From: Paraburkholderia flava
GTDB lineage: Bacteria; Pseudomonadota; Gammaproteobacteria; Burkholderiales; Burkholderiaceae
Length of the DNA stretch: 64,000 nucleotides
Assembly (NCBI RefSeq): GCF_004359985.1
Contig: NZ_SMRO01000003.1
Coordinates: forward strand, 363,523-427,522
Direction: 5' to 3'
Positions 1 to 12,245 of the stretch are shown here, in pieces (positions within the stretch are counted from its first letter, which is position 1; every line of letters starts with the position of its first letter). The position numbers were made by a program, and so were the translations under genes. A model generated the notes under the pieces. The model was not told where the DNA came from. It worked only from the letters and a program-made list of their open reading frames with translations, and searched no databases.

Positions 1-1830
1 CAGATCAACGTCAACGCGGCGAATCTGACGAACCGGAATGGCGCACTCACCCAGCTCGGATCGGGGGCGACAGCCGTGAGCGTCAGCGACATGCTCGACA
101 ATTCGAGCGGTGGTGTGATCCAGACCAACAGCACAGACTTCACGCTTGCGCCGACGACGCTGAACAACGATGGCGGGACGATCACGCATGCCGGCACCGG
201 CACGCTGACGATCAATGCGGACCACGGCACGGGGTCGCTGACAAACGTCGGCGGCAAGATCGTGACGAACGGTCTGGCGAATGTGTCAGCGGGGAGCGTG
301 GACGACTCGGGCGGCACGATCTCTGGACAGACCGGGCTGAACGCGACGATCGCCGGTGCGTTGAACAATACGAACGGCCGGATTGACTCGAACGGGGATC
401 TGACTGTCACGAGTGGTTCGGCCATCACGAACGCCAACGGGACAATCTCTGCGGCGAATAATGCCTCCGTGCAGTCGACTTCGCTAACGAACGGCGGTAG
501 CGTGACAGCGGGCCAGGATCTCGACGTTACCGTGACTGGCACGCTGGACAACAGCAGCGGCACGCTGAGCGCGCAGACGGTTGACGCCAAAGCTGCGTCG
601 CTGAAAAACGCGAACGGGACGATCAGCGCCAATACCGTGTCGGTAACCGCCCCGCAACTCGACAACAGCGGCGGAAAGATTACGACGAACAAGCTAAATC
701 TTGTCGCCACGAACCTGACGAACGAGCACGGGTCGATTACGCAGCTCGGAACCGGCGTAATGGGCCTGGGCGTGAGCGGCACGCTCGACAACTCCAACGG
801 CGGTTTGATCCAGACGAAAAGCACGGATCTGACGTTTGCCTCCGCGAGCTTTAACAACGACGGCGGAACCATTACGCACGCCGGGACCGGGACGCTGTCG
901 ATCACTGCCGGCGACGGCGCGGGTACCGTCACCAACATCAATGGCTCGATTATCAGCAACGGGCAGGTAGTGCTGAATGCGGGCAGCGTGGACGACACCG
1001 GCGGCTCCGTCGGCGGGCAATCCGGACTGAGCGCGACCGTTGCCGGTGCCTTGAACAACACCCGGGGACAACTCGAATCGAACGGGGACCTGAGCGTCAC
1101 AAGCGGCTCGTCCATCACGAACACCGGCGGAACAATTGCAGCGTCGGGCAATAACACGGTGCAGGCCGCATCACTGACGAACGGTGGCAGCATCACGGCC
1201 GGGCGGAGTCTCAACACCGTTGTTAGCGGCATGCTGGACAACAGTAACGGGACGCTGAGCGGGCAGACGGTGACGGCAAACGCCGCGTCGTTCAGGAACG
1301 CGAGCGGGGTCGTGAGCGGCGACGCGGTGTCGATGATGATTGCCCAGCTCGACAACAGTCGTGGACGAATCACCACGAACCAGTTCACGGTCACCGCGAC
1401 GGACCTGACGAACGAAGGTGGATCGATCACGCAGCTTGGGACCGGTACGATCGGCTTCGGCGTGAGCGGTACGCTCGACAACGCGAACGGCGGCGTGATC
1501 CAGAGCAACAGCACGGATCTGACGTTGGCTTCTACATCGGTAAACAACAACGGCGGCACGATCACGCACGCCGGCACCGGAACGCTGACGATCGATCCAC
1601 ACAACGGCGCGGGGTCGTTGACGAACGTCGGCGGCAAGATCGTGACCAACGGTCAGGCGTCGCTGTCGGTCGGCAGTCTCGACAACACCGGCGGTTCGCT
1701 CGCTTCGCAAGGCATCATGTCCGCGACAGTCCAGGGGACGTTGAACAACACAAATGGACGACTGTCGTCGGGCACCGGACTGACCGCATCCAGCGGCGGT
1801 GCGCTGATCAATGCCGGAGGGGTGATAGGC
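1..1830 (+). repeat. Tandem 690-bp (230-residue) macro-repeat in cdiA
   Basis: The same succession of motifs (GTLDN.NGG.IQ, STDLT, GGTITHAGTGTL, NGQ, LNNT.G, LTNGGS, LTNE.GSITQLGTGT) recurs with anchors at bases 91, 781 and 1471, exactly 690 bases apart each time. Bases 1-90 match the end of the unit, so the array begins before the window. The third copy decays after about 1830. The units are diverged, not identical, so this looks like old internal duplication in the beta-helix shaft. Confidence 0.85.
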
Positions 1831-4800
1831 GCGGGCGGCGTGGTGACGGGCAGCACGCTAAACGTCAGCGCATCGTCGATCAACAATGCGGGCGGCGCGA
1901 TCACCAACGTCGGGAATGGCGCGACGACAATCAACGGCGGCAGTCAGATCACCAACAGCAATGCCGGTAACGTGTCGGGTATGGGTTCGGTCAGCGGTAA
2001 CGGCAGCGTAACGCTGAGCGCGACGTCGATCTCCAACACACAGGGCGGCCAGTTGAGCGGCGCGAACCTGCAGATCAACGCCGGCAATCTGTCCAACACT
2101 GGCGGGCAGATCGGGAATGTCGCCAACACGACGGGCGACGTGGGGATCGCGACAGGCACGCTGACTGGCACAAGCGGCCGGATCAATGCATCCCGGAATC
2201 TGTCGATTACCGCAAACACGCTGGCGGGCGGTGGTTCGTACAGCGCGGTCAACGATCTATCGCTGAACCTGCAGGGCGATTTCACGACCGCGCCGAACTA
2301 CGGCTTCAATGCCGGCCACAATCTGACCTTCACGCTGCCCGGCACATTCAGTAACGGTGGTGCCCTGTCGGCGGTGAGCGGACTCAACATCAACGCGGGC
2401 AATATCCTGAACTCGGGGGCGCTGGCGGCGGGAGGTCTACTGACCACGCACTCGAACACGCTGACCAATACCGGCACGATCGTGGGCGGCAGCGTGTCGC
2501 TGAATGCAGCTCAAACCCTGTCGAACCTCGGCACGACTGCGTTGATCGGCGCAACGGACAGCGCGGGCACGCTCGAACTGCTCGCATCGGATATCGAGAA
2601 CCGCGACGACACGAGCGCAAGCGACACGCAGGCGACGACCGCGATTTACGGTCTTGGCAGAGTGGTACTCGCTGGCGGCAAGGATGCGAGCGGCAATTAC
2701 ACCAACGCGAATTTGATCCGGAATCAGTCCGGGCTGATCCAGTCGAGCGGCGACATGCTGATCGCCGCGAATCAGGTGACGAACACGCGGCGCGTGATGA
2801 GTACGTCCGGTTTCACGTCGTCGGTCGATCCGGCGCTGCTGCAAAGCCTCGGCATTAGTCTGTCCGGCCGGACCGGCCAGGTGGGTGTGAAGGATCCGAA
2901 CAGCATTGGCGGTGTCTATACCGATCCGCCGCACGGCGGTCAGTGGAACAGCACTTACGAGTTCACGACATATACAGGCGTGGCGGTCGCGAGTTCGGTT
3001 ACGTCAGTCAGCGCGGAATCGCAGATTATCGCCGGTGGCAACCTGAACGCGGCGTCGGTCGGAACGTTCCAGAACTACTGGAGCCAGGTGGCCGCTGCAG
3101 GCAATATCGCCGCACCTGTTCACCTCGACCAGAACAGCTGGCAGGGTCAGGCGGCGCCGCAGGTGCAGGTTACGTATTCGGGCGAGTACCACTACAACAA
3201 TTACGATAACAGCGAGCACGACTGGCAGCTGCCGTTCGGCAATGCTCCATTCGTCGGCTCCCGTCCCGGTGGCTACAGCCAGGCGGCGCCGGCCGACGTT
3301 CACACCTACGCCCTGCCGGCGTACGAATCGTCCTTCACGGCGGGCGGTACGCTGAGTGGTACGGGTGTGACCATCAACAACACGGCAGGCAACGCAGGCG
3401 TGACCCCGCTCGGGCTCCTGCCGGGGCAGACGGTATCGGGCGTCGGGGCTGGCTCTGTGAGCGGATCGATCGGTGCTCATGGCGTGGGCGCGATCGGCGC
3501 CGGTGCGGTGGGCGGATCCGTTCTCACGGGCGGCGGTACGCACGCGGTCCAAGTGGCGGTTCAGGGTGGCCATATCACCAACAGTGGTCTCACGAACTTC
3601 AACAACCCGATCGTTGCGGCTGCGACGGCGGTCAACGTCCTCAACAACATCACAGTGCCGCAAGGTGGCCTGTTCAGCCCGGACAAAGCGCCGAACGCAC
3701 CGTATCTGATCGAGACCAACCCTGCTTTCACGAACCAGCAGCAGTGGTTATCGAGCGACTACTACTTCCAGCAGATGGGCATGAACCCCGGCCAGATGCA
3801 GATGCGTCTGGGCGACGGGTTCTACGAGCAGAAGCTCGTACAGGATCAGATCCTGTCGATGACCGGGAAGTCTGTGCTGACAAATTATGCGAGCACGCAG
3901 GACGAATTCCAGGCACTGATGACATCGGGCGCCGCACTCGCGAAGTCGCTCGATCTGGCTCCCGGCACGGGGCTGTCGCCCGAGCAGGTGGCGCAGTTGA
4001 CAGGTAACGTCGTCATCATGCAGACGCAGATCGTCGACGGGGAGCGCGTGCTTGTGCCGACGGTCTATCTGGCGAAAGCGAGCCAGGAGAACATGGGCAA
4101 CGGTCCGGTCATCGCCGCGACGGACATCAATCTGCAGAACGCGCAGTCGGTTACCAACAGCGGAATGATCAAGGCGGCGAACAGCTTTGCGGTTAGCGGA
4201 CAGAGCATCGACAGCTCGTTCGGGACGTTGCAAAGCGGTGGGCAGATGTCGCTCGTGACGACGGGCAACGTGAACCTGACGTCCGCAACGCTCAATGCCG
4301 GCAGCCTGGCGCTGCAGACGGGCGGCGATCTAATCCTGGACACGGCGGCAAAGACGCTCAATCAGGTTAGCGATAGTGGTGCGACCCGCGTTACGACGAC
4401 ACTTGGGCCGACTGCGAGCATCAACGTGGCGGGCGCCGCGGCGATCGTGACGGGTGGGAACTTCGAGCAGAACGCGGGGGTGTTGAATGTCGGCGGTGCG
4501 CTTGGAATGAGTATCGGCGGCAACTGGAATCTCGGCGTACAGGAGACGGGCGAGACGAAGGTGGTCGCGCGGGCGAACGGTATATCCGACACGCACATCG
4601 TGAGCGACACGGGCAGTAGCGTGAAGGTGGGTGGCATGTCTTCGATCGCGGTTGGTGGCGATCTGACCGCGACCGGCGCGAACATCCAGCTGGGTGGAGG
4701 TGGAACAGTCGCTGCAGCCGGAAACGTGACGCTGCAGGCCGCAACCGCGACGTCGACCGTGGACAGCAACAGTTCCGGTAGCGACCATCACGGCAGCTAC

Positions 4801-7800
4801 GCAGAGACGCTCCACACCTCAGACGACGCGGTGACGGGCACGACGCTCAAGAGCGGCGATAGTCTCGCCATCGTGTCGGGTAAGGATCTGAACATTACGG
4901 GCAGCACGGTCTCGCTCGACAAGGGCAATGCGCTGCTGATGGCGTCAGGTAATGTGAACGTCGGCGCCACGGCGGAGACGCACGTCTCGGACACCTACCA
5001 GACCGGCAGCCACAGTGGCGTCGCAAGCCACACGAGCTCGGTCGATCAGGTCGACCGGAGCGCGACGTATGCCGACGGCAGCACGATCTCGGCGGATGGC
5101 GTGTCGGTCATCAGCGGCAAAGACATTAATGTGACCGGCAGCAACATCGTCGGTACCAACCAGGTCTCGCTGGCCGCGCTGGGTAACGTGAACGTTATGG
5201 CCGCGACGGACACGTCGCAGGACAGCGAATACCACCAGGTGAAGCACTCCGGGCTCTCGGGCTCGGGTGGCCTCGGGGTGACCATTGGATCGAGCGAACA
5301 GAGCGACCGGTACAACGGCAGCTCGGTGACGCAGAGCCAGTCGCGCAGCACGGTCGGTAGCGTGGCGGGCAACGTGTCGATTACCGCTGGCCAGAACGTC
5401 CATATCGGCGGTAGCGACGTTGTCGCAGGGAAAGCCGCGGGCGACGTCACGGGTGCAACCGGCAACATCAGCGTGACGGGCCAGAACGTCACGATCGACC
5501 CGAGCCAGGACAATACACAATCGCACGATCAGCAGGAGGCGCATTCGAGCGGTCTGACGGTTGCGGTGACGGGAACACCGCTCGACACGGTCCGCAACCT
5601 GCGGGACGACGCGTCGTCGGGGAATGGTTTTCATCGCGCGCAGGGCGTCCTGAACGAGCTTGGCGCGAGCGCGGCCGATACCCCATCGATTTCCGTGTCC
5701 TACGGCCGCAGTGAGAGTTCGAGTACGACCGACACGTCGAGCCTGGCCAATGCGGGCAGCACGATCCGGGGAGGCGGCAATGTGTCGGTCACGGCGACGG
5801 GCGGTGCGGCCAGAGTGCGCGGCGCACCGGTCGACGGTGACATCACGGTGACGGGCTCCACGATCAGTGCGGGCGGTACGACGACGCTCGCCGCGAACCG
5901 CAACGTGATCCTTCAGGCGTCAACGGATCAGTTCGCGCAAGGTACGCAGTCGAGCAGTTCCAGCACGGGCATCTCGCTCGCATCACCGAGCCTTGGCGAT
6001 CTGGGCCGCTGGATCGGCGGTACGGCGAATAACGGTGGCACAAGCCCTTCGCCGTACAACGCGAGCCGCAGCAATTCAAACGGGGCGCAGACGCAGACCA
6101 CGCAGACTGCGACGGTGGTGTCGGGCAACAGCGTGGTGGTGAAGAGCACGACCGGCGACATCGACGTGATCGGATCGGGGATCAGCGGGACGCAAGGTGT
6201 CGATCTGATCGCGAGCCAGGGTGCGATCAACGTGCTGGCTGGGCTCGATACGAGCACGAACCACCAGGAGTCGAGCGCTCACCAGATCGGCAGCCTTGGC
6301 AGCAACGGCACGGCCACGGGTTTCAGCGTTGGCGTGGCTAACAGTCACAGTGTGCAGGACACAGCCGCGCAGACGCAGAGCACGATGCGCAGCCAGATCG
6401 TGAGCGGCAACGGCAACGTGACGCTCGATGCGAAGCAGGACGTGACGGTGGCCGGCGCCGATCTGGGTGCAGGCAAAGATCTGACGCTGATCGGCAAGAA
6501 CGTGAACCTTGATCCGGGCACGGATGCGACGCAAAGCAGTGAGAGCCAGAGTTCCAGCCAGTTCGGCGTGACGCTTGCGCTGGGTGGAGCAGTGGGCAAT
6601 GCGGTCGCGACGGTCAACCAGAGCATGAACAGTGCGAGCCATGCAGGGGATTCGCGTCTGGCCGCGCTCGATACGGCGCAGGCAGGGCTCGCGGTCTATA
6701 ACGCGTATCAGGTCGCGAGTGCAAAGGGGCCGACGGGGCAGCCGCTGATCAAGGCGACTGTGAGCGTAGGCGGTGGCTCAAGTCACAGCGATTCGCAAAG
6801 CAGTGCGGTGGCGAACGACGGCAGCACGCTGCATGCAGGAGGCACGGTCAACGTGATCGCAGCGGGAAGCGGCGCGAAGGATGCGAACGGTGTTGCGACG
6901 GACGGCGACATCAACGCGCGCGGCACGCAGATTTCGGGGCAGGACGTCGTGCTGAATGCGGCACACGACATCAACCTGCAAAGCGCACAGGACACCAGCC
7001 AGCAGTCTGGTCATAACAGCAGCAGCGGCGGCAGTATTGGGGTTGGCCTTGGGCTGGGCGGACAGCAGAACGGCTTCACGCTGGAGCTGGCGGCGAATAC
7101 GTCACATGGCAACTCGAACGGCCAGAGCGTGACTAATCGCGATACGCAGATCGCAGCGAGCCATACGCTCTCCATCACGAGTGGGCGCGATACGAACCTG
7201 CAGGGGGCCGAGGTATCGGGTCAGACAATCGACGCGAACGTAGGACGCAACCTGACGATCCAGAGCCCGCAGGATACGAGCACATACGACAGCAAACAAT
7301 CGAGTGCCGGATTCCAGGCAAGCATCTGCGTGCCGCCGTTCTGCTTCGGTCAGACGGTGAGCGGCAGCGCTAGCGTCAGCCAGCAGAAGATCGATTCGAA
7401 CTTCCAGTCGGTGAACCAGCAGAGCGGGATGTATGCGGGCGATGGCGGCTTCAATGTCAACGTCGGCAATCATACGCAGCTGGATGGCGGGGTGATTGCG
7501 AGCACGGCGGGCGCGGATAAAAACACCCTGTCGACGCAGACCCTCGGGTATACGGATCTGCAGAATCACGCGGACTACTCGGGCTCGACCCTAGGCTTCA
7601 GCGCGAGCGGCGGGGCCGGCAAAAGCACGGCCAACGGAGTGGGCTTTACGACACCGGTGCAGACCGGCAGCAGCGCGCCGGGGCCGCTGAATTCGCAGGG
7701 ACTGGGGCCGACAGGTTTCGGGGCAGCGGGTACGAGCAGTAGCGCATCGGGGACGACGTATGCGGCGGTGAGTCCTGGCACGATCACGGTGCGCGGTGAC

Positions 7801-9468
7801 GCGGGAACCAGTCACGACAGCACGGCGGGGCTGAGCCGCGACACGGCAAACGCGAACGGCTCGGTGCAGAACACGTTCGATGCACAGAAGGTATCGAACG
7901 ACATGGCGGTCCAGCAGGGTGCGGTCCAGGTCGGGATGCAGGTGGTGGGGGATGTGGCCACTGCGCTGAAGGACAAGGCTGACACAGCTCTGGACAAGGC
8001 CTCGAAGGCGTATGACACGGCGAAGGCGAATGGCGACACGGCTGGCATGGCGCGGGCGCAGGCCGATATCACGGCGGCTAGTCAGCAGCAGACGCTGTGG
8101 AGCAACGATGGGGCTGCACGGGTTGGCTTGCATGCTGCAGTCGCGGCGCTCGGAGCCGCACTGGGCGGAGGCAATGTTGCGGGGGCGGTGGGTGGAACGG
8201 TTGCGGGTGACCTGGCCGGAAGTGCGGCCAGTGATGCGCTGGGTAACACGCTCGGCGGCAACTTGTTGTCGAATGTCGTGGCTGGCGCGGCGGGCGCTGT
8301 AGCGGGCGGAGCGCTGGGTGGTTCGTCTGGTGCGATGAGTGGTGCAAACGGGGCGTTGGGTGCGGATCTCTTCAATCGTCAGCTTCATCCTGAGGAAGTG
8401 GACGTGGTGAAGAAGCTCGCCGAGCAGAAGGCGCAGGAGATGTGCCGTGGGGACGCAGGATGCGTTGCGAGTGCGACGACCTATTGGACCGACATGCTGG
8501 AGCGTGCAGCGAAGGGTATGGTCGACGACACAGCCAGCAAGGAGAACGGGGCCTATCTTCAGGGGTTGATTCAGGCGTCGAACAATCCGGGTAGTGAAGG
8601 TGCAATGGGTGCACTGGGATCGTATCTGGCGAACCTTCAGACAGCCGAAGACATGTTGTCGCAATACATGGGTAAGCCCATTCTGGTACGCGGCTCGCCT
8701 ATCATTTCCGACGGTGCTACCCAGACATATTTCAGTGCGACGCCCGCGCAGCGTTCAGACCAGTATCTGAACTCCGGATTTGGCTCGCTGCCCGACCCGA
8801 TGATACCTGGCGTGAGCCAGCGTGATCAGGATCGCCTGAATTCCTTCGCCACGCCCAACGGCTCTGCGAATCCCGACTACTCGATCGAGGAAACGGTCAT
8901 CGGCGGGATGCTCACTAGCAAGATTGCGTCGACGGTTGCGCGTATTGTTGGATCTCTCGACGTTAGCCTTGCAGGTCCGGTGGTTGCCTCCAAGGGGGGG
9001 AACATCAGTGCCAGCCAGATTACGACCGAGGGAATGACTGTCGGTCTGAATGCGACGGAAAAAGGCATGCTGTCGCAGATTGACGGCTCGATGAGTACAA
9101 CGCTGCAAGGTGATGTACGCGAGTACGTGGCGAACAACTATTTCGTACGTAATGGCTTTACGGCGCTCGATGGGAAATGCGGAGTCAATTGCTTCGACGG
9201 TGTCTATGTCAAGGGCGATACCGTATATATCAACGAAGTAAAACCGTTGAACGCTGATGGATCGATCAAGCTTAATGGTCCATCCGACACCTTGCCAGCA
9301 CAAATGAACGATAAATGGGTTGATAGCGCGGTTAGCCGTCTTCGAAATGGCGATGCTAGTCAAATAGCCACTGCCGACCTGATTCAGAAGGCAATCGACA
9401 GTAATAAACTTGTTAAGCTGGTTACGGGAGTTAATTCTGACAGCGCAACACTTGTGAGATTGAAATAG
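1..9468 (+). CDS. cdiA: CdiA-type contact-dependent inhibition exoprotein / filamentous haemagglutinin (5' end outside window)
   Basis: The frame is open from base 1, so about 3,155 C-terminal codons are seen and the secretion signal and TPS domain lie upstream. A GTG at 76 is only an internal codon. Known of the family: CdiA is exported by the two-partner transporter CdiB and delivers a C-terminal toxin into neighbouring cells. Seen in order: Asn/Gly/Thr-rich beta-helix repeats (residues 1 to about 750), a mixed Tyr/Pro-rich region (about 940-1360), haemagglutinin-type repeats (about 1430-2450), a Gly/Ala-rich hydrophobic pretoxin segment (about 2700-2790), then LFNRQLHPEE at residues 2790-2799. 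That motif corresponds to the (Q/E)LYN boundary beyond which Burkholderia CdiA tails vary. The last ~100 residues carry Asp3066 (FDGVY) and Glu3079-Val-Lys3081, a D...ExK arrangement typical of PD-(D/E)XK nucleases. Base composition turns A+T-rich in the last ~240 bases, fitting a swapped toxin module. No bcpB-like transporter gene follows, so a cdiB-A-I order with cdiB upstream is inferred. Confidence 0.9.
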   Translation, partial: QINVNAANLTNRNGALTQLGSGATAVSVSDMLDNSSGGVIQTNSTDFTLAPTTLNNDGGTITHAGTGTLTINADHGTGSLTNVGGKIVTNGLANVSAGSVDDSGGTISGQTGLNATIAGALNNTNGRIDSNGDLTVTSGSAITNANGTISAANNASVQSTSLTNGGSVTAGQDLDVTVTGTLDNSSGTLSAQTVDAKAASLKNANGTISANTVSVTAPQLDNSGGKITTNKLNLVATNLTNEHGSITQLGTGVMGLGVSGTLDNSNGGLIQTKSTDLTFASASFNNDGGTITHAGTGTLSITAGDGAGTVTNINGSIISNGQVVLNAGSVDDTGGSVGGQSGLSATVAGALNNTRGQLESNGDLSVTSGSSITNTGGTIAASGNNTVQAASLTNGGSITAGRSLNTVVSGMLDNSNGTLSGQTVTANAASFRNASGVVSGDAVSMMIAQLDNSRGRITTNQFTVTATDLTNEGGSITQLGTGTIGFGVSGTLDNANGGVIQSNSTDLTLASTSVNNNGGTITHAGTGTLTIDPHNGAGSLTNVGGKIVTNGQASLSVGSLDNTGGSLASQGIMSATVQGTLNNTNGRLSSGTGLTASSGGALINAGGVIGAGGVVTGSTLNVSASSINNAGGAITNVGNGATTINGGSQITNSNAGNVSGMGSVSGNGSVTLSATSISNTQGGQLSGANLQINAGNLSNTGGQIGNVANTTGDVGIATGTLTGTSGRINASRNLSITANTLAGGGSYSAVNDLSLNLQGDFTTAPNYGFNAGHNLTFTLPGTFSNGGALSAVSGLNINAGNILNSGALAAGGLLTTHSNTLTNTGTIVGGSVSLNAAQTLSNLGTTALIGATDSAGTLELLASDIENRDDTSASDTQATTAIYGLGRVVLAGGKDASGNYTNANLIRNQSGLIQSSGDMLIAANQVTNTRRVMSTSGFTSSVDPALLQSLGISLSGRTGQVGVKDPNSIGGVYTDPPHGGQWNSTYEFTTYTGVAVASSVTSVSAESQIIAGGNLNAASVGTFQNYWSQVAAAGNIAAPVHLDQNSWQGQAAPQVQVTYSGEYHYNNYDNSEHDWQLPFGNAPFVGSRPGGYSQAAPADVHTYALPAYESSFTAGGTLSGTGVTINNTAGNAGVTPLGLLPGQTVSGVGAGSVSGSIGAHGVGAIGAGAVGGSVLTGGGTHAVQVAVQGGHITNSGLTNFNNPIVAAATAVNVLNNITVPQGGLFSPDKAPNAPYLIETNPAFTNQQQWLSSDYYFQQMGMNPGQMQMRLGDGFYEQKLVQDQILSMTGKSVLTNYASTQDEFQALMTSGAALAKSLDLAPGTGLSPEQVAQLTGNVVIMQTQIVDGERVLVPTVYLAKASQENMGNGPVIAATDINLQNAQSVTNSGMIKAANSFAVSGQSIDSSFGTLQSGGQMSLVTTGNVNLTSATLNAGSLALQTGGDLILDTAAKTLNQVSDSGATRVTTTLGPTASINVAGAAAIVTGGNFEQNAGVLNVGGALGMSIGGNWNLGVQETGETKVVARANGISDTHIVSDTGSSVKVGGMSSIAVGGDLTATGANIQLGGGGTVAAAGNVTLQAATATSTVDSNSSGSDHHGSYAETLHTSDDAVTGTTLKSGDSLAIVSGKDLNITGSTVSLDKGNALLMASGNVNVGATAETHVSDTYQTGSHSGVASHTSSVDQVDRSATYADGSTISADGVSVISGKDINVTGSNIVGTNQVSLAALGNVNVMAATDTSQDSEYHQVKHSGLSGSGGLGVTIGSSEQSDRYNGSSVTQSQSRSTVGSVAGNVSITAGQNVHIGGSDVVAGKAAGDVTGATGNISVTGQNVTIDPSQDNTQSHDQQEAHSSGLTVAVTGTPLDTVRNLRDDASSGNGFHRAQGVLNELGASAADTPSISVSYGRSESSSTTDTSSLANAGSTIRGGGNVSVTATGGAARVRGAPVDGDITVTGSTISAGGTTTLAANRNVILQASTDQFAQGTQSSSSSTGISLASPSLGDLGRWIGGTANNGGTSPSPYNASRSNSNGAQTQTTQTATVVSGNSVVVKSTTGDIDVIGSGISGTQGVDLIASQGAINVLAGLDTSTNHQESSAHQIGSLGSNGTATGFSVGVANSHSVQDTAAQTQSTMRSQIVSGNGNVTLDAKQDVTVAGADLGAGKDLTLIGKNVNLDPGTDATQSSESQSSSQFGVTLALGGAVGNAVATVNQSMNSASHAGDSRLAALDTAQAGLAVYNAYQVASAKGPTGQPLIKATVSVGGGSSHSDSQSSAVANDGSTLHAGGTVNVIAAGSGAKDANGVATDGDINARGTQISGQDVVLNAAHDINLQSAQDTSQQSGHNSSSGGSIGVGLGLGGQQNGFTLELAANTSHGNSNGQSVTNRDTQIAASHTLSITSGRDTNLQGAEVSGQTIDANVGRNLTIQSPQDTSTYDSKQSSAGFQASICVPPFCFGQTVSGSASVSQQKIDSNFQSVNQQSGMYAGDGGFNVNVGNHTQLDGGVIASTAGADKNTLSTQTLGYTDLQNHADYSGSTLGFSASGGAGKSTANGVGFTTPVQTGSSAPGPLNSQGLGPTGFGAAGTSSSASGTTYAAVSPGTITVRGDAGTSHDSTAGLSRDTANANGSVQNTFDAQKVSNDMAVQQGAVQVGMQVVGDVATALKDKADTALDKASKAYDTAKANGDTAGMARAQADITAASQQQTLWSNDGAARVGLHAAVAALGAALGGGNVAGAVGGTVAGDLAGSAASDALGNTLGGNLLSNVVAGAAGAVAGGALGGSSGAMSGANGALGADLFNRQLHPEEVDVVKKLAEQKAQEMCRGDAGCVASATTYWTDMLERAAKGMVDDTASKENGAYLQGLIQASNNPGSEGAMGALGSYLANLQTAEDMLSQYMGKPILVRGSPIISDGATQTYFSATPAQRSDQYLNSGFGSLPDPMIPGVSQRDQDRLNSFATPNGSANPDYSIEETVIGGMLTSKIASTVARIVGSLDVSLAGPVVASKGGNISASQITTEGMTVGLNATEKGMLSQIDGSMSTTLQGDVREYVANNYFVRNGFTALDGKCGVNCFDGVYVKGDTVYINEVKPLNADGSIKLNGPSDTLPAQMNDKWVDSAVSRLRNGDASQIATADLIQKAIDSNKLVKLVTGVNSDSATLVRLK

Positions 9469-9477
9469 GATGGCGAA

Positions 9478-10287
9478 ATGGACATCGAAGAAATGAGAAG
9501 GAAAAAATTAGGATTTGATGCAGCAATGCATCATATTCCAGAGGTGTCGAACAAGATTCGTAATCGAATTAAACCCATTAATTTAAAGCGTTGTTATGAT
9601 GGTTTGGCAAGGGATCATGTTGTAGTCGGTTTATACAATTATTTTATTGATGAAAATCTGTCGCTGCTTAAAAATAATTTATATACGTCATGCACTGTGG
9701 AGTTGGCTTCTTTGGCTATAAGTGAAGATAGATTTGAACTTCAAACGCCAGATTTTTTGTTATATTCTATGCTCTCTGATTCGGAGGAAATGGTTCAGAA
9801 ATTTTCGACTGCTTCTTCACAAGGATTTGTGAGTGCAAGAGAAGATCCATTAAACAGTCAATTCTACGTTCATATGCTTCAACTAGCAATGATGGGCGAT
9901 GATGTTTCTTTGTCTGGAAAAATTCGTCGAATGGCTAAAAATGGACGAAAGCCCTTACGTACGCTGTGTGAGAAAGGTGATGATTTCTTCTCAAAATTGA
10001 TTCGTAGCGATAAAAATGGACTTGAGAAGAGTATATATTCCGATGCTACTCGTAAATTGGAACATGTATATACGGAAGATTATTTTTCGTTCACAGCAGT
10101 ATTAGAGGCAAAACTGTGCTGGCGCCGCGGCATTCCGGTTGAAATCGATCATCCGTTAGTGCCGATGGAACTGATGCCAGTCCAACCACTTGATCACTAT
10201 AACGACGTGTACGATTTCCTGAAACCTGATTGGGTTCCCCCTTCGCAGGGGCTGATCGGTCGCGTTTCCCGATGGTTCAAGACGTGA
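9478..10287 (+). CDS. Candidate cognate CdiI immunity protein, Imm49-like
   Basis: A 269-residue cytoplasmic-type protein without signal peptide or membrane segment starts 9 bases after the cdiA stop, with an AGGA overlapping that stop, the position expected for cdiI. The C-terminal segment (about residues 209-250: EAKLCWRRGIPVEIDHPLVP, then a DVYDFL motif) resembles the Imm49 immunity family as I remember it. Inferred role: binds and neutralises the CdiA-CT toxin in sibling cells. The first ~600 bases are strikingly A+T-rich (about 35% G+C by hand count on the first 60 bases) with TTA, ATA and AGA codons, unlike the flanking core genes. From about 10110 onward composition is host-like, and the tail matches the downstream copy almost exactly, so the gene looks like a recombinant. 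The family name is recognition only; the immunity role rests mainly on position. Confidence 0.7.
   Translation: MDIEEMRRKKLGFDAAMHHIPEVSNKIRNRIKPINLKRCYDGLARDHVVVGLYNYFIDENLSLLKNNLYTSCTVELASLAISEDRFELQTPDFLLYSMLSDSEEMVQKFSTASSQGFVSAREDPLNSQFYVHMLQLAMMGDDVSLSGKIRRMAKNGRKPLRTLCEKGDDFFSKLIRSDKNGLEKSIYSDATRKLEHVYTEDYFSFTAVLEAKLCWRRGIPVEIDHPLVPMELMPVQPLDHYNDVYDFLKPDWVPPSQGLIGRVSRWFKT
10137..10285 (+). repeat. Direct repeat, copy 1: shared 3' tail of the two immunity genes
   Basis: Bases 10137-10178 are identical over 42 bases to 11008-11049, and similarity continues with scattered substitutions to the end of both frames. Spacing between copies is 871 bases. The homology could serve recombination between immunity modules. 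Confidence 0.9.
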
Positions 10288-10343: not shown

Positions 10344-11164
10344 ATGACTACGTCCGCATCCCGTGAGCAAGGCCTGGAGAATCTTTTGTGCTTTTATCAA
10401 AAGAGCCTCCCGGAAACGCTCAAAAATATCCATCACCGTCGCAACAACGTCCGACTTGGCGCGGTATTGTGTCAGCTAGCAAGGCATGCTCATGTCAAAG
10501 CCATGCACGCGTATTTCGTTGAACACGATGTCGACCAATGCAAGCAGAATTTTTATCTTGCTACGCGGCTCACACTCGAAAGTGTTGGACAGGACGGAGG
10601 CGCTTCGTTCGAGGTCGGCGGAGATATCCAGATTGCGCTTCTGTCGGATAGCCCTGTAATCATTGATGTCATTGCGCGAGTCGAGATCCCTGAACTGATC
10701 AGCCAGCGTAACGATCCGTTGGCCAGTCGGTTCTATGTCTACATGCTGCAGCTTGCGATCCGCGGTGAAGACGATGCCGTGCGCGTGATGATCGAGAAGG
10801 TCGCGAAGCACGGGAAAAAGCCTTGGCGTACCGAATGTGCTGAAGGGCGCGATTTTTTTCACTCCTCATTAAGCGTGACAAAGCTGGGCTCGAAGATCGT
10901 ATCCGGAAGAAGTGTTCGAGTATGAAAAGTCAAGACTCGATCGACGATGAGTTCATGTCGTATACCGGTACTTTGGAAGCCAAGCTAAGCTGGTATCGGG
11001 GTATCCAGGTTGAAATCGATCATCCGTTAGTGCCGATGGAACTGATGCCGGTCCAGTTTCTTGATCACTACGACGACGTGTACGATTTCCTGAAGCCGGG
11101 CTGGGTGCCACCTCCACAGGGATTGGTCGGCAGGGTCTCGCGATGGTTTAAGGCTAAGAGATAA
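10344..11164 (+). pseudogene. Second Imm49-like immunity gene, split by a one-base deletion in a T run
   Basis: Two frames, 10344-10925 (193 residues) and 10922-11164 (80 residues), together align end to end with the 269-residue upstream protein. The break is at the T7 run 10853-10859. Adding one T turns the reading into DFFSLLIKRDKAGLEDRI, which matches DFFSKLIRSDKNGLE of the intact copy and joins both halves. The ATG at 10922 is then just an internal Met. Composition is closer to the host than the upstream copy. It is probably an older immunity gene left behind after a toxin swap; protection against a former toxin is lost unless the run slips back or the base is a sequencing error. Confidence 0.8.
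11008..11157 (+). repeat. Direct repeat, copy 2: shared 3' tail of the two immunity genes
   Basis: Counterpart of the repeat beginning at 10137. The first 42 bases (11008-11049) are identical between copies. Both encode VEIDHPLVPMELMPVQ followed by DHY.DVYDFLKP.WVPP and a GRVSRWFK ending. Confidence 0.9.
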
Positions 11165-11167
11165 GCT

Positions 11168-11287
11168 TTGACCAGTAAAACGCCAGAGGATTCTCTGGGT
11201 AATTGGCTTAAGCAGGACGAAGCCGATCTTCCACGAATTCTTGAGGCTATATACCACTGCTGCAACCAATTGGCTTACACAAATTAA
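11168..11287 (+). other. Short orphan frame, possible remnant of another cargo gene
   Basis: A TTG-initiated frame of 39 codons begins 3 bases after the broken immunity copy. It reads with a plausible amphipathic composition (SLGNWLKQDEADLPRILEAI) before a stop at 11285. Directly after, another frame (from about 11278) stays open into the next gene, so one more frameshift could join them. No family was recognised and no clear Shine-Dalgarno is present. It may be a decayed 5' end and not a gene. Confidence 0.3.
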
Positions 11288-11355: not shown

Positions 11356-11757
11356 ATGAGTAACGAGGAGCCCGGTTGGGATGATGTCAATCAGTGTATC
11401 CAGCACGCCTTCCAGAGAGGCGGGAAGGTTACGTTGACAGCAGCCACGCGTGAAGATATTGACAAGCTAAATTTGGGGAGCGTACTAGCAATGGATTCGC
11501 ATCCCGGTAAGTACAGACTTGTCTACGATCCTTTGACTCTTCCGAACGAAAAGACGAAGCGAAGAGAATGGTGGGAGTCGGGAGATGAACCATTTCGAGG
11601 CACAGCGAATTTTCATGATCACGAGTGGGACGATCGGACGGTGTGTCGAGAAATAAAGGTGGCCCTACACATATTTCGCGATTTCTTTGATCACGGCGAT
11701 CTTACTGAATCTAGCACAGCGCAAACACGCTCTGTTTGGGATCGGAAATCACGTTAA
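11356..11757 (+). CDS. Small orphan immunity-type protein (DUF6911-like)
   Basis: A 133-residue acidic soluble protein. The layout (N-terminal GWDDVNQCI, central GKYRLVYD, C-terminal WDDRTVCREI then IFRDFFDHGDL) resembles small DUF6911-type proteins that I associate with polymorphic-toxin immunity clusters; this match is from memory and unverified. The frame is open upstream to 11245 with no good start, and the ATG at 11356 lacks a strong Shine-Dalgarno, so the gene may be 5'-truncated. Position downstream of two cdiI-like genes, with lower G+C than the core genes beyond 12246, supports accessory cargo. Function unknown. Confidence 0.5.
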   Translation: MSNEEPGWDDVNQCIQHAFQRGGKVTLTAATREDIDKLNLGSVLAMDSHPGKYRLVYDPLTLPNEKTKRREWWESGDEPFRGTANFHDHEWDDRTVCREIKVALHIFRDFFDHGDLTESSTAQTRSVWDRKSR

Positions 11758-12169: not shown

Positions 12170-12245
12170 TGGTGGGGCGTGACAGATTCGAACTGTCGAC
12201 CTACGGATTAAGAGTCCGCTGCTCTACCAGCTGAGCTAACGCCCC
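12170..12245 (-). tRNA. tRNA-Lys (anticodon CTT)
   Basis: The minus strand folds into a full cloverleaf of 76 nt with encoded CCA: acceptor GGGGCGT/ACGCCCC, D-arm GCTCAGCTGGTAGAGC, anticodon loop CTCTTAA giving CTT, and T-loop TTCGAAT. Its 3' end faces the CDI region, the side where tRNA-targeted islands insert. Confidence 0.95.

What the first reader, a model, noticed from the sequence alone, without database searches (positions are those of the whole stretch)
8377..9468. Variable CdiA C-terminus with a D...ExK nuclease-like toxin
Seen: the LFNRQLHPEE boundary at 8368-8397, then about 360 residues ending in FDGVYV...INEVKP (Asp3066, Glu3079, Lys3081) next to a Cys pair (CGVNC). Established: Burkholderia CdiA tails past (Q/E)LYN are interchangeable toxins, several of them PD-(D/E)XK tRNases or DNases. 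Inferred: this is a nuclease toxin whose A+T-rich end came by transfer. The sequence between the Gly/Ala segment and the catalytic core is likely an entry domain. I could not match the tail to a known toxin class.
Basis: partly seen in the sequence, partly recalled or inferred. Interest (0 to 1): 0.7.

Follow-up and report, generated by a model that had tools for sequence, protein, structure and literature searches.

The report
Contact-delivered nuclease toxin with Imm49 immunity
The end of this giant bacterial surface protein looks like a DNA- or RNA-cutting toxin injected into neighbouring cells and made beside its own antidote; it resembles a toxin class already studied in Burkholderia thailandensis, and toxin end and antidote appear to be traded between bacteria as one unit.

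Summary
Window 8377-9468 is the variable C-terminus of a 3911-aa CdiA. Asp3066, Glu3079 and Lys3081 are where stated and present in 51 of 51 homologues. The last 130 residues model at pLDDT 90 as a PD-(D/E)XK core, nearest to an unannotated protein and archaeal Holliday-junction resolvases. The next gene is an Imm49 immunity protein (67.7 bits, cut-off 30.1). A survey lists Imm49 as partner of Tox-REase-1 and -6, with the same E, D, ExK, Q motif. The nearest studied relative is very probably B. thailandensis E264 BcpA-CT, whose catalytic substitutions abolish inhibition. So this is a new member of a known kind, and its class can be named.

New detail: in nine Burkholderia loci, toxin core, toxin tail and the first ~220 immunity codons behave as one exchanged ~1 kb cassette; the entry domain does not follow that grouping and the last ~50 immunity codons only weakly. 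The window fits: its lowest G+C spans this stretch, and broken Imm49 copies of another type follow. Its gene order is cdiB-cdiA-cdiI, unlike bcpAIOB. Activity is untested.

The parts
1..9468 (+). C-terminal 3155 residues of CdiA (3911 aa; its start lies upstream of the window at G000:C3:361255)
   Evidence: TPS, ESPR and Fil_haemagg_2 domains in P0004
8368..8397 (+). LFNRQLHPEE boundary between constant stalk and variable C-terminus (divergent form of the Burkholderia Nx(E/Q)LYN motif)
8398..8988 (+). Cytoplasm-entry (translocation) domain plus linker, tail residues 8-204; helical at its start in the model, low confidence at 131-138 and 163-194
   Evidence: same segment with another toxin in P0135; 8 of 51 toxin homologues lack it
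8989..9468 (+). Toxin domain shared by the homologues; nuclease core modelled at 9076-9468
   Evidence: pLDDT 90.4
9121..9123 (+). Glu of the RE motif in the first core helix (tail E249)
   Evidence: invariant in 24 of 24
9196..9198 (+). Asp3066, presumed metal-ligand Asp of PD-(D/E)XK (tail D274)
   Evidence: invariant in 24 of 24 and in 51 of 51
9235..9243 (+). Glu3079-x-Lys3081, the (D/E)XK motif (tail E287, K289)
   Evidence: E in 23 of 24 (Asp in the other), K in 24 of 24
9301..9318 (+). Gln and Trp of QMNDKW (tail Q309, W314)
   Evidence: invariant in 24 of 24
9142..10137 (+). Approximate extent in the window of the exchanged cassette: toxin core and tail plus first ~220 immunity codons (inferred by homology)
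   Evidence: synonymous-site profile in nine Burkholderia loci; composition in the window
9478..10287 (+). cdiI: intact Imm49 immunity protein, 269 aa
   Evidence: PF15575, 67.7 bits against cut-off 30.1
10138..10284 (+). Constant C-terminal ~49 codons of the immunity gene
   Evidence: repeat 10102-10281 / 10973-11152 at 79%
10344..11164 (+). Second Imm49 copy, interrupted by a frame change; of a different type (N-terminal part 68% to L030, 31% to the first copy)
11168..11257 (+). Third Imm49 scrap (30 N-terminal residues, 50% to L030)
   Evidence: E 3.9e-7

Best explanation
This is the toxin end of a contact-dependent inhibition (CDI) exoprotein. CdiB, encoded just upstream, exports CdiA to the surface. 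On contact the tail is released into a neighbour, and the segment after LFNRQLH carries it across the inner membrane (inferred from CDI knowledge and domain swaps). The last ~130 residues are a compact PD-(D/E)XK nuclease that uses Asp3066, Glu3079 and Lys3081, with an upstream Glu and a Gln, to hold metal and cut nucleic acid, probably DNA (predicted fold and conserved residues shown; activity and substrate inferred). The Imm49 protein encoded 9 bases downstream blocks it in the producer and its kin (pairing shown by neighbourhood; inhibition inferred). The class is very probably that of Burkholderia thailandensis E264 BcpA-CT/BcpI. New specificities appear to spread as a cassette of about 1 kb with one end inside the nuclease domain and the other about 50 codons before the end of the immunity gene. 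In this genome the incoming cassette apparently displaced an older Imm49 type, whose broken copy still lies downstream (inferred).
Confidence: 0.85

Rival explanations
1. Same fold and pairing, but the substrate is RNA: a tRNase, like the PD-(D/E)XK Burkholderia toxins of strains 1026b and E479.
For: PD-(D/E)XK CDI toxins include both DNases and tRNases (PMC9086364 passages). tRNA-splicing endonucleases are also among the fold matches.
Against: Many of the listed fold matches are DNA enzymes: Hjc, I-Ssp6803I, EcoRV, HincII. The BtE264 relative was likened to Holliday-junction resolvases and endonucleases. A shared fold shows no substrate.
Confidence: 0.25
2. The shared immunity C-terminus reflects only purifying selection on a functional motif, not recombination with a junction inside the gene.
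For: Amino-acid identity there is 0.97 while fourfold sites are at 0.66, and a similar motif is seen by eye in the distant Imm49 of L039. In the nine Burkholderia loci the C-part follows no flank clearly.
Against: Between neighbouring 12-codon windows A-B fourfold identity goes from 0.26 to 0.87 and then stays at 0.46-0.76, and over the last part A-B (0.66) comes close to A-A (0.75) and B-B (0.70); selection on protein alone does not do that. In 13 loci (L032 left out) the C-part distances follow the entry domain (r 0.90), not the toxin tail (0.34). Codon-usage constraint was not modelled.
Confidence: 0.15
3. The tail is a decayed or inactive nuclease kept for adhesion or signalling.
For: The downstream immunity genes are decaying, and one same-genus relative (G171) has a broken toxin frame.
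Against: In the window the frame is intact, all catalytic residues are present, the first Imm49 is intact and the toxin-to-immunity gap is 9 bases.
Confidence: 0.05

Closest known systems
Burkholderia thailandensis E264 BcpA-CT / BcpI
   Same: By inference the same toxin and entry domain as P0018 (3147 aa, as E264) and L034/G083 (58% identity in the last 160 residues); Imm49 immunity of about 270 aa; ExK needed for function in E264.
   Different: E264 has bcpAIOB order; here cdiB lies upstream, next to cdiA. The immunity N-part is another allele type (26% between types A and B), so cross-protection is not expected. E264's own letters were not compared.
Tox-REase-1 and Tox-REase-6 with Imm49 (Zhang et al. 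2012, PMC3482391, passages read)
   Same: E, D, ExK, Q motif and Imm49 partner.
   Different: Which of the two, or a third family, could not be decided: no toxin-family model matched in Pfam or NCBIfam.
Archaeal Holliday-junction resolvase Hjc
   Different: 9-19% identity in the listed Hjc rows; no reason to expect junction specificity.
DNase CDI toxins TA271 and YPIII; Pfam PF18451 (that PF18451 covers such toxins is recalled)
   Same: PD-(D/E)XK fold (PMC9086364 passages) and the same kind of delivery; P0135 joins the window's entry domain to a PF18451 toxin.
   Different: PF18451 is not among the matches of the 24 and 33 members scanned.

Membership tests
CDI (two-partner) toxin | TPS secretion domain and haemagglutinin repeats in the exoprotein | tested here: met
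   TPS 188 bits, ESPR 54 bits, Fil_haemagg_2 six stretches
CDI (two-partner) toxin | CdiB/FhaC-type transporter linked to the gene | tested here: met
   649-aa ShlB/FhaC protein with POTRA domains directly upstream
CDI (two-partner) toxin | Immunity gene directly downstream | tested here: met
   Imm49 ORF 9 bases after the stop
CDI (two-partner) toxin | Contact-dependent inhibition blocked by the immunity protein | not testable with these tools
   needs a bench test
Burkholderia-type bcpAIOB locus | Gene order A-I-(O)-B | tested here: not met
   B gene upstream of A; no B-gene match in the 64-kb window, while 10 of 16 contexts have one downstream of the immunity gene
Burkholderia-type bcpAIOB locus | Nx(E/Q)LYN motif | tested here: not met
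   reads GADLFN before RQLH
Burkholderia-type bcpAIOB locus | bcpO lipoprotein gene | not tested
   no specific search was made in the window
[quoted passage not shown]
   predicted: H8-25, E29-31, E42-46, E49-58, H79-90, H94-108, E112-119, E124-129; by recalled classification most of the 50 listed fold matches are PD-(D/E)XK nucleases
PD-(D/E)XK superfamily | Asp and (D/E)xK on adjacent strands | tested here: met
   D41 directly before strand 42-46, E54 and K56 in strand 49-58 of the core model
PD-(D/E)XK superfamily | metal-dependent nuclease activity | not testable with these tools
   needs purified protein
Tox-REase-1 / Tox-REase-6 | E, D, ExK, Q residues | tested here: met
   E249, D274, E287-x-K289, Q309; motif as listed in PMC3482391; the further Y of Tox-REase-6 was not tested
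Tox-REase-1 / Tox-REase-6 | match to that family's own profile | tested here: inconclusive
   no toxin-family match in Pfam or NCBIfam for 33 members; the published alignment was not at hand
Imm49 (PF15575) | score over the curated cut-off | tested here: met
   67.7 bits against 30.1
BtE264 BcpA-CT class | sequence homology to BtE264 BcpA-CT itself | tested here: inconclusive
   E264's sequence was not fetched; inference from protein lengths and names

The most novel reading that the evidence does not exclude
The Imm49 immunity protein is a two-part lock: an exchangeable N-terminal ~220 residues that reads the toxin's exchangeable C-terminal part, and a constant ~50-residue foot shared by all alleles. 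New toxin-immunity specificities spread, across CDI loci of different gene order, by swapping a ~1 kb cassette whose ends lie inside both genes, so a partial-domain swap is enough to found a new kin group.
Probability: 0.4. Interest if true: 0.6.

Novelty: new member of a known kind. Interest (0 to 1): 0.42.

Why it matters
The E264 toxin is the model for contact-dependent signalling (PMC7662968 passages), yet the link from its activity to gene expression is called unknown (PMC6350997 passage). Placing it, very probably, in an Imm49-partnered nuclease family with dozens of natural variants, including this one in a different gene order, lets one ask which residues set toxicity, signalling and immunity. 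A recent paper, discussing E. coli toxins, says CDI domains of a given nuclease family typically share over 90% identity and may evolve under more restraint than ionophores (PMC11630599 passage). Here toxin tails of one nuclease family average 50% identity, and immunity N-parts 26%, between two Burkholderia allele types. If the cassette junctions hold, specificity maps to a defined stretch in both proteins.

Tried and rejected
Looking for a named toxin family by sequence gave nothing usable: Pfam, NCBIfam and PDB searches with single proteins and with alignments A1 or A2, and PADLOC with single proteins; the weak hits listed there are scattered and unrelated. Plasmid records: no match. An order-wide draw of 399 genomes found only the window's own copy, although names relatives in genera such as Variovorax, Herbaspirillum and Acinetobacter, so the draw is sparse. 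I thought the immunity C-part might co-evolve with the toxin core (r 0.80 over 14 loci); without the divergent L032 it follows the entry domain better (0.90 against 0.63), so I dropped that reading. In one search, 16 of 398 genomes matched and all 16 have Imm49 next to the toxin; in two of them (G171, G161) the toxin is broken or a remnant, and in others (G377, G187, G112) the complete tail sits in a short frame of 358-689 aa. A later 39-residue toxin fragment (G818) is in a genome without an Imm49 match. Reverse test: 12 of 65 Burkholderia genomes have Imm49: 9 follow a complete toxin tail of this family, 1 a distant relative of it (G162), 1 a toxin-tail remnant (G333) and 1 neither (G049). 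Of 10 of 144 same-genus genomes with Imm49, the three close ones (G000, G112, G171) have the toxin or its broken form; of the seven distant ones (25-33% identity) six were inspected upstream by eye, one has a distant related toxin (L063), five show none, and G814 was not inspected. Loci used for distances: 14; broken or distant ones (L037, L038, L039) were left out.
Full report
What is there. The open frame ending at 9468 is the C-terminal 3155 residues of a 3911-residue CdiA. The whole protein has a TPS secretion domain, an extended signal peptide and haemagglutinin repeats. Its transporter gene, a 649-residue ShlB/FhaC protein, lies directly upstream and overlaps the cdiA start by four bases. 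So the order is cdiB-cdiA-cdiI. In 10 of 16 contexts searched the transporter lies downstream of the immunity gene instead (L025-L028, L030, L033-L036, L039); in the Pandoraea locus one lies upstream on the opposite strand (L044).

In a 24-sequence alignment Asp3066 and Lys3081 are invariant, Glu3079 is Glu in 23 and Asp in one distant member, and an upstream Glu, a Gln and a Trp are invariant as well. The Cys pair is present in 51 of 51 homologues but absent from the distant L039.

Partner. The gene at 9478-10287 is Imm49 by Pfam. In the 398 genomes of the family draw 16 have the toxin, and in all 16 an Imm49 frame follows at once, including two where the toxin is broken or a remnant and one where toxin and immunity are only about 25% identical to the window's. 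A 17th genome, G784, behaves the same. The reverse test is not perfect and is given in full under Tried and rejected. Zhang et al. 2012 (PMC3482391, passages read) list Imm49 as partner of Tox-REase-1 (E, D, ExK, Q) and Tox-REase-6 (E, D, ExK, Q, Y). In the held library, 'Imm49' as a whole word occurs in five papers; the two on toxins are that survey and PMC7073777.

Relation to studied systems. PMC3415462 (section 8 read) gives B. thailandensis E264 a BcpA of 3147 and a BcpI of 270 residues. P0018 is 3147 residues with Glu of ExK at 3064; the E264 mutant numbers E3064/K3066 are recalled and not from a call. The immunity protein of G083 equals P0104, called BcpI of the pseudomallei group, 270 residues, Imm49, though G083's BcpA frame is 3151 residues. 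PMC3990724 (passages) says the E264 tail resembles Holliday-junction resolvases and endonucleases, that substitutions of predicted catalytic residues abolish CDI, and that its actual activity was not determined; PMC6350997 (passages) uses the BcpA-EKAA mutant as catalytically inactive. PMC7662968 (passages) speaks of BcpA-CT DNase activity only as a possible explanation of signalling. The class assignment is therefore strong but indirect.

Modularity. The segment between LFNRQLH and about tail residue 204 is found in 43 of 51 toxin homologues and not in 8. P0135 has it with a PF18451 toxin. That is the behaviour of an entry domain.

The exchange cassette. Nine Burkholderia loci fall into two allele types by their immunity gene (five of 269 residues, four of 270). 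At fourfold-degenerate sites the entry domain shows no grouping (A-B 0.68, A-A 0.69, B-B 0.70; rank of the grouping 35 of 126 partitions, and 61 of 126 at all sites). In the nuclease core the values are A-B 0.37, A-A 0.69, B-B 0.46; in the toxin tail 0.27, 0.80, 0.39; in immunity columns 1-205 0.35, 0.77, 0.48; in the last part 0.66, 0.75, 0.70. The 5' fall lies around FVRNGF, where amino acids are still 0.98 identical, and the 3' recovery around VEIDHP, some 50 codons before the immunity stop. The grouping was defined on the immunity gene, so the flank result is the informative one. Against it: a weak signal remains in the last part (ranks 6 and 2 of 126), the 600 bases behind the immunity gene are mixed (B-B above A-B in seven of seven windows, A-A below A-B in six of seven), and type B is itself diverse inside the cassette. 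Toxin-tail and immunity N-part distances correlate at 0.94 in these nine loci and entry-domain and immunity N-part at 0.00; the immunity C-part correlates at 0.48 with the tail and 0.37 with the entry domain there. Over 14 loci tail and N-part give 0.84, entry and N-part 0.39. PMC3415462 already noted alleles differing only in the last 100-200 residues and inferred that BcpI would bind there; Poole et al. (PMC3150448, passages) described module exchange at the VENN border. A junction inside the immunity gene was not found in the listings and passages I saw (searches; passages), which is not proof that it is unreported.

The window's history. Its tail is most like type A (79-82% nt in the last third), its linker before the core is more like same-genus L029 and Trinickia-like L030, and the G+C of the stretch from about 9190 to 10135 is 0.33-0.47, with 0.48-0.53 where the constant immunity end begins. 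The following decaying stretch stays near 0.5, still under the surrounding genes, and type A cassettes in Burkholderia are also low in G+C, though less so. Downstream lie a second Imm49 copy with a frame change, 68% to L030 but 31% to the first copy, and a 30-residue scrap of a third. Intact relatives of that second type exist in other genomes (L029-L031). The simplest story is that a type A cassette arrived and the displaced immunity genes are decaying. This is inference.

Overall. The toxin is a new member of a known kind; the cassette boundaries are the part worth following.

Noticed in passing
window 10344-11257: Two decaying Imm49 copies of another type downstream of the intact one: a small graveyard of immunity genes.
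   Followed up: yes
window 11356-11757: DUF6911 gene (PF21852, 33.1 bits, cut-off 24) of unknown function in the immunity stretch; 3 of 141 same-genus genomes have the family.
   Followed up: partly
window 12170-12245 (-): tRNA-Lys (CTT) just beyond the A+T-rich stretch; possible island boundary, not tested for attachment repeats.
   Followed up: no
L052 (G333): Orphan Imm49 preceded by a FhaC-like N-terminal frame (identified by eye) ending in a toxin-tail remnant; looks like a deletion scar.
   Followed up: partly
L039 and L063: Distant Imm49-linked toxin with IDSK in place of the ExK motif and no Cys pair.
   Followed up: partly
L044 (G174): FhaC-like gene upstream of cdiA on the opposite strand, a third gene arrangement.
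   Followed up: no
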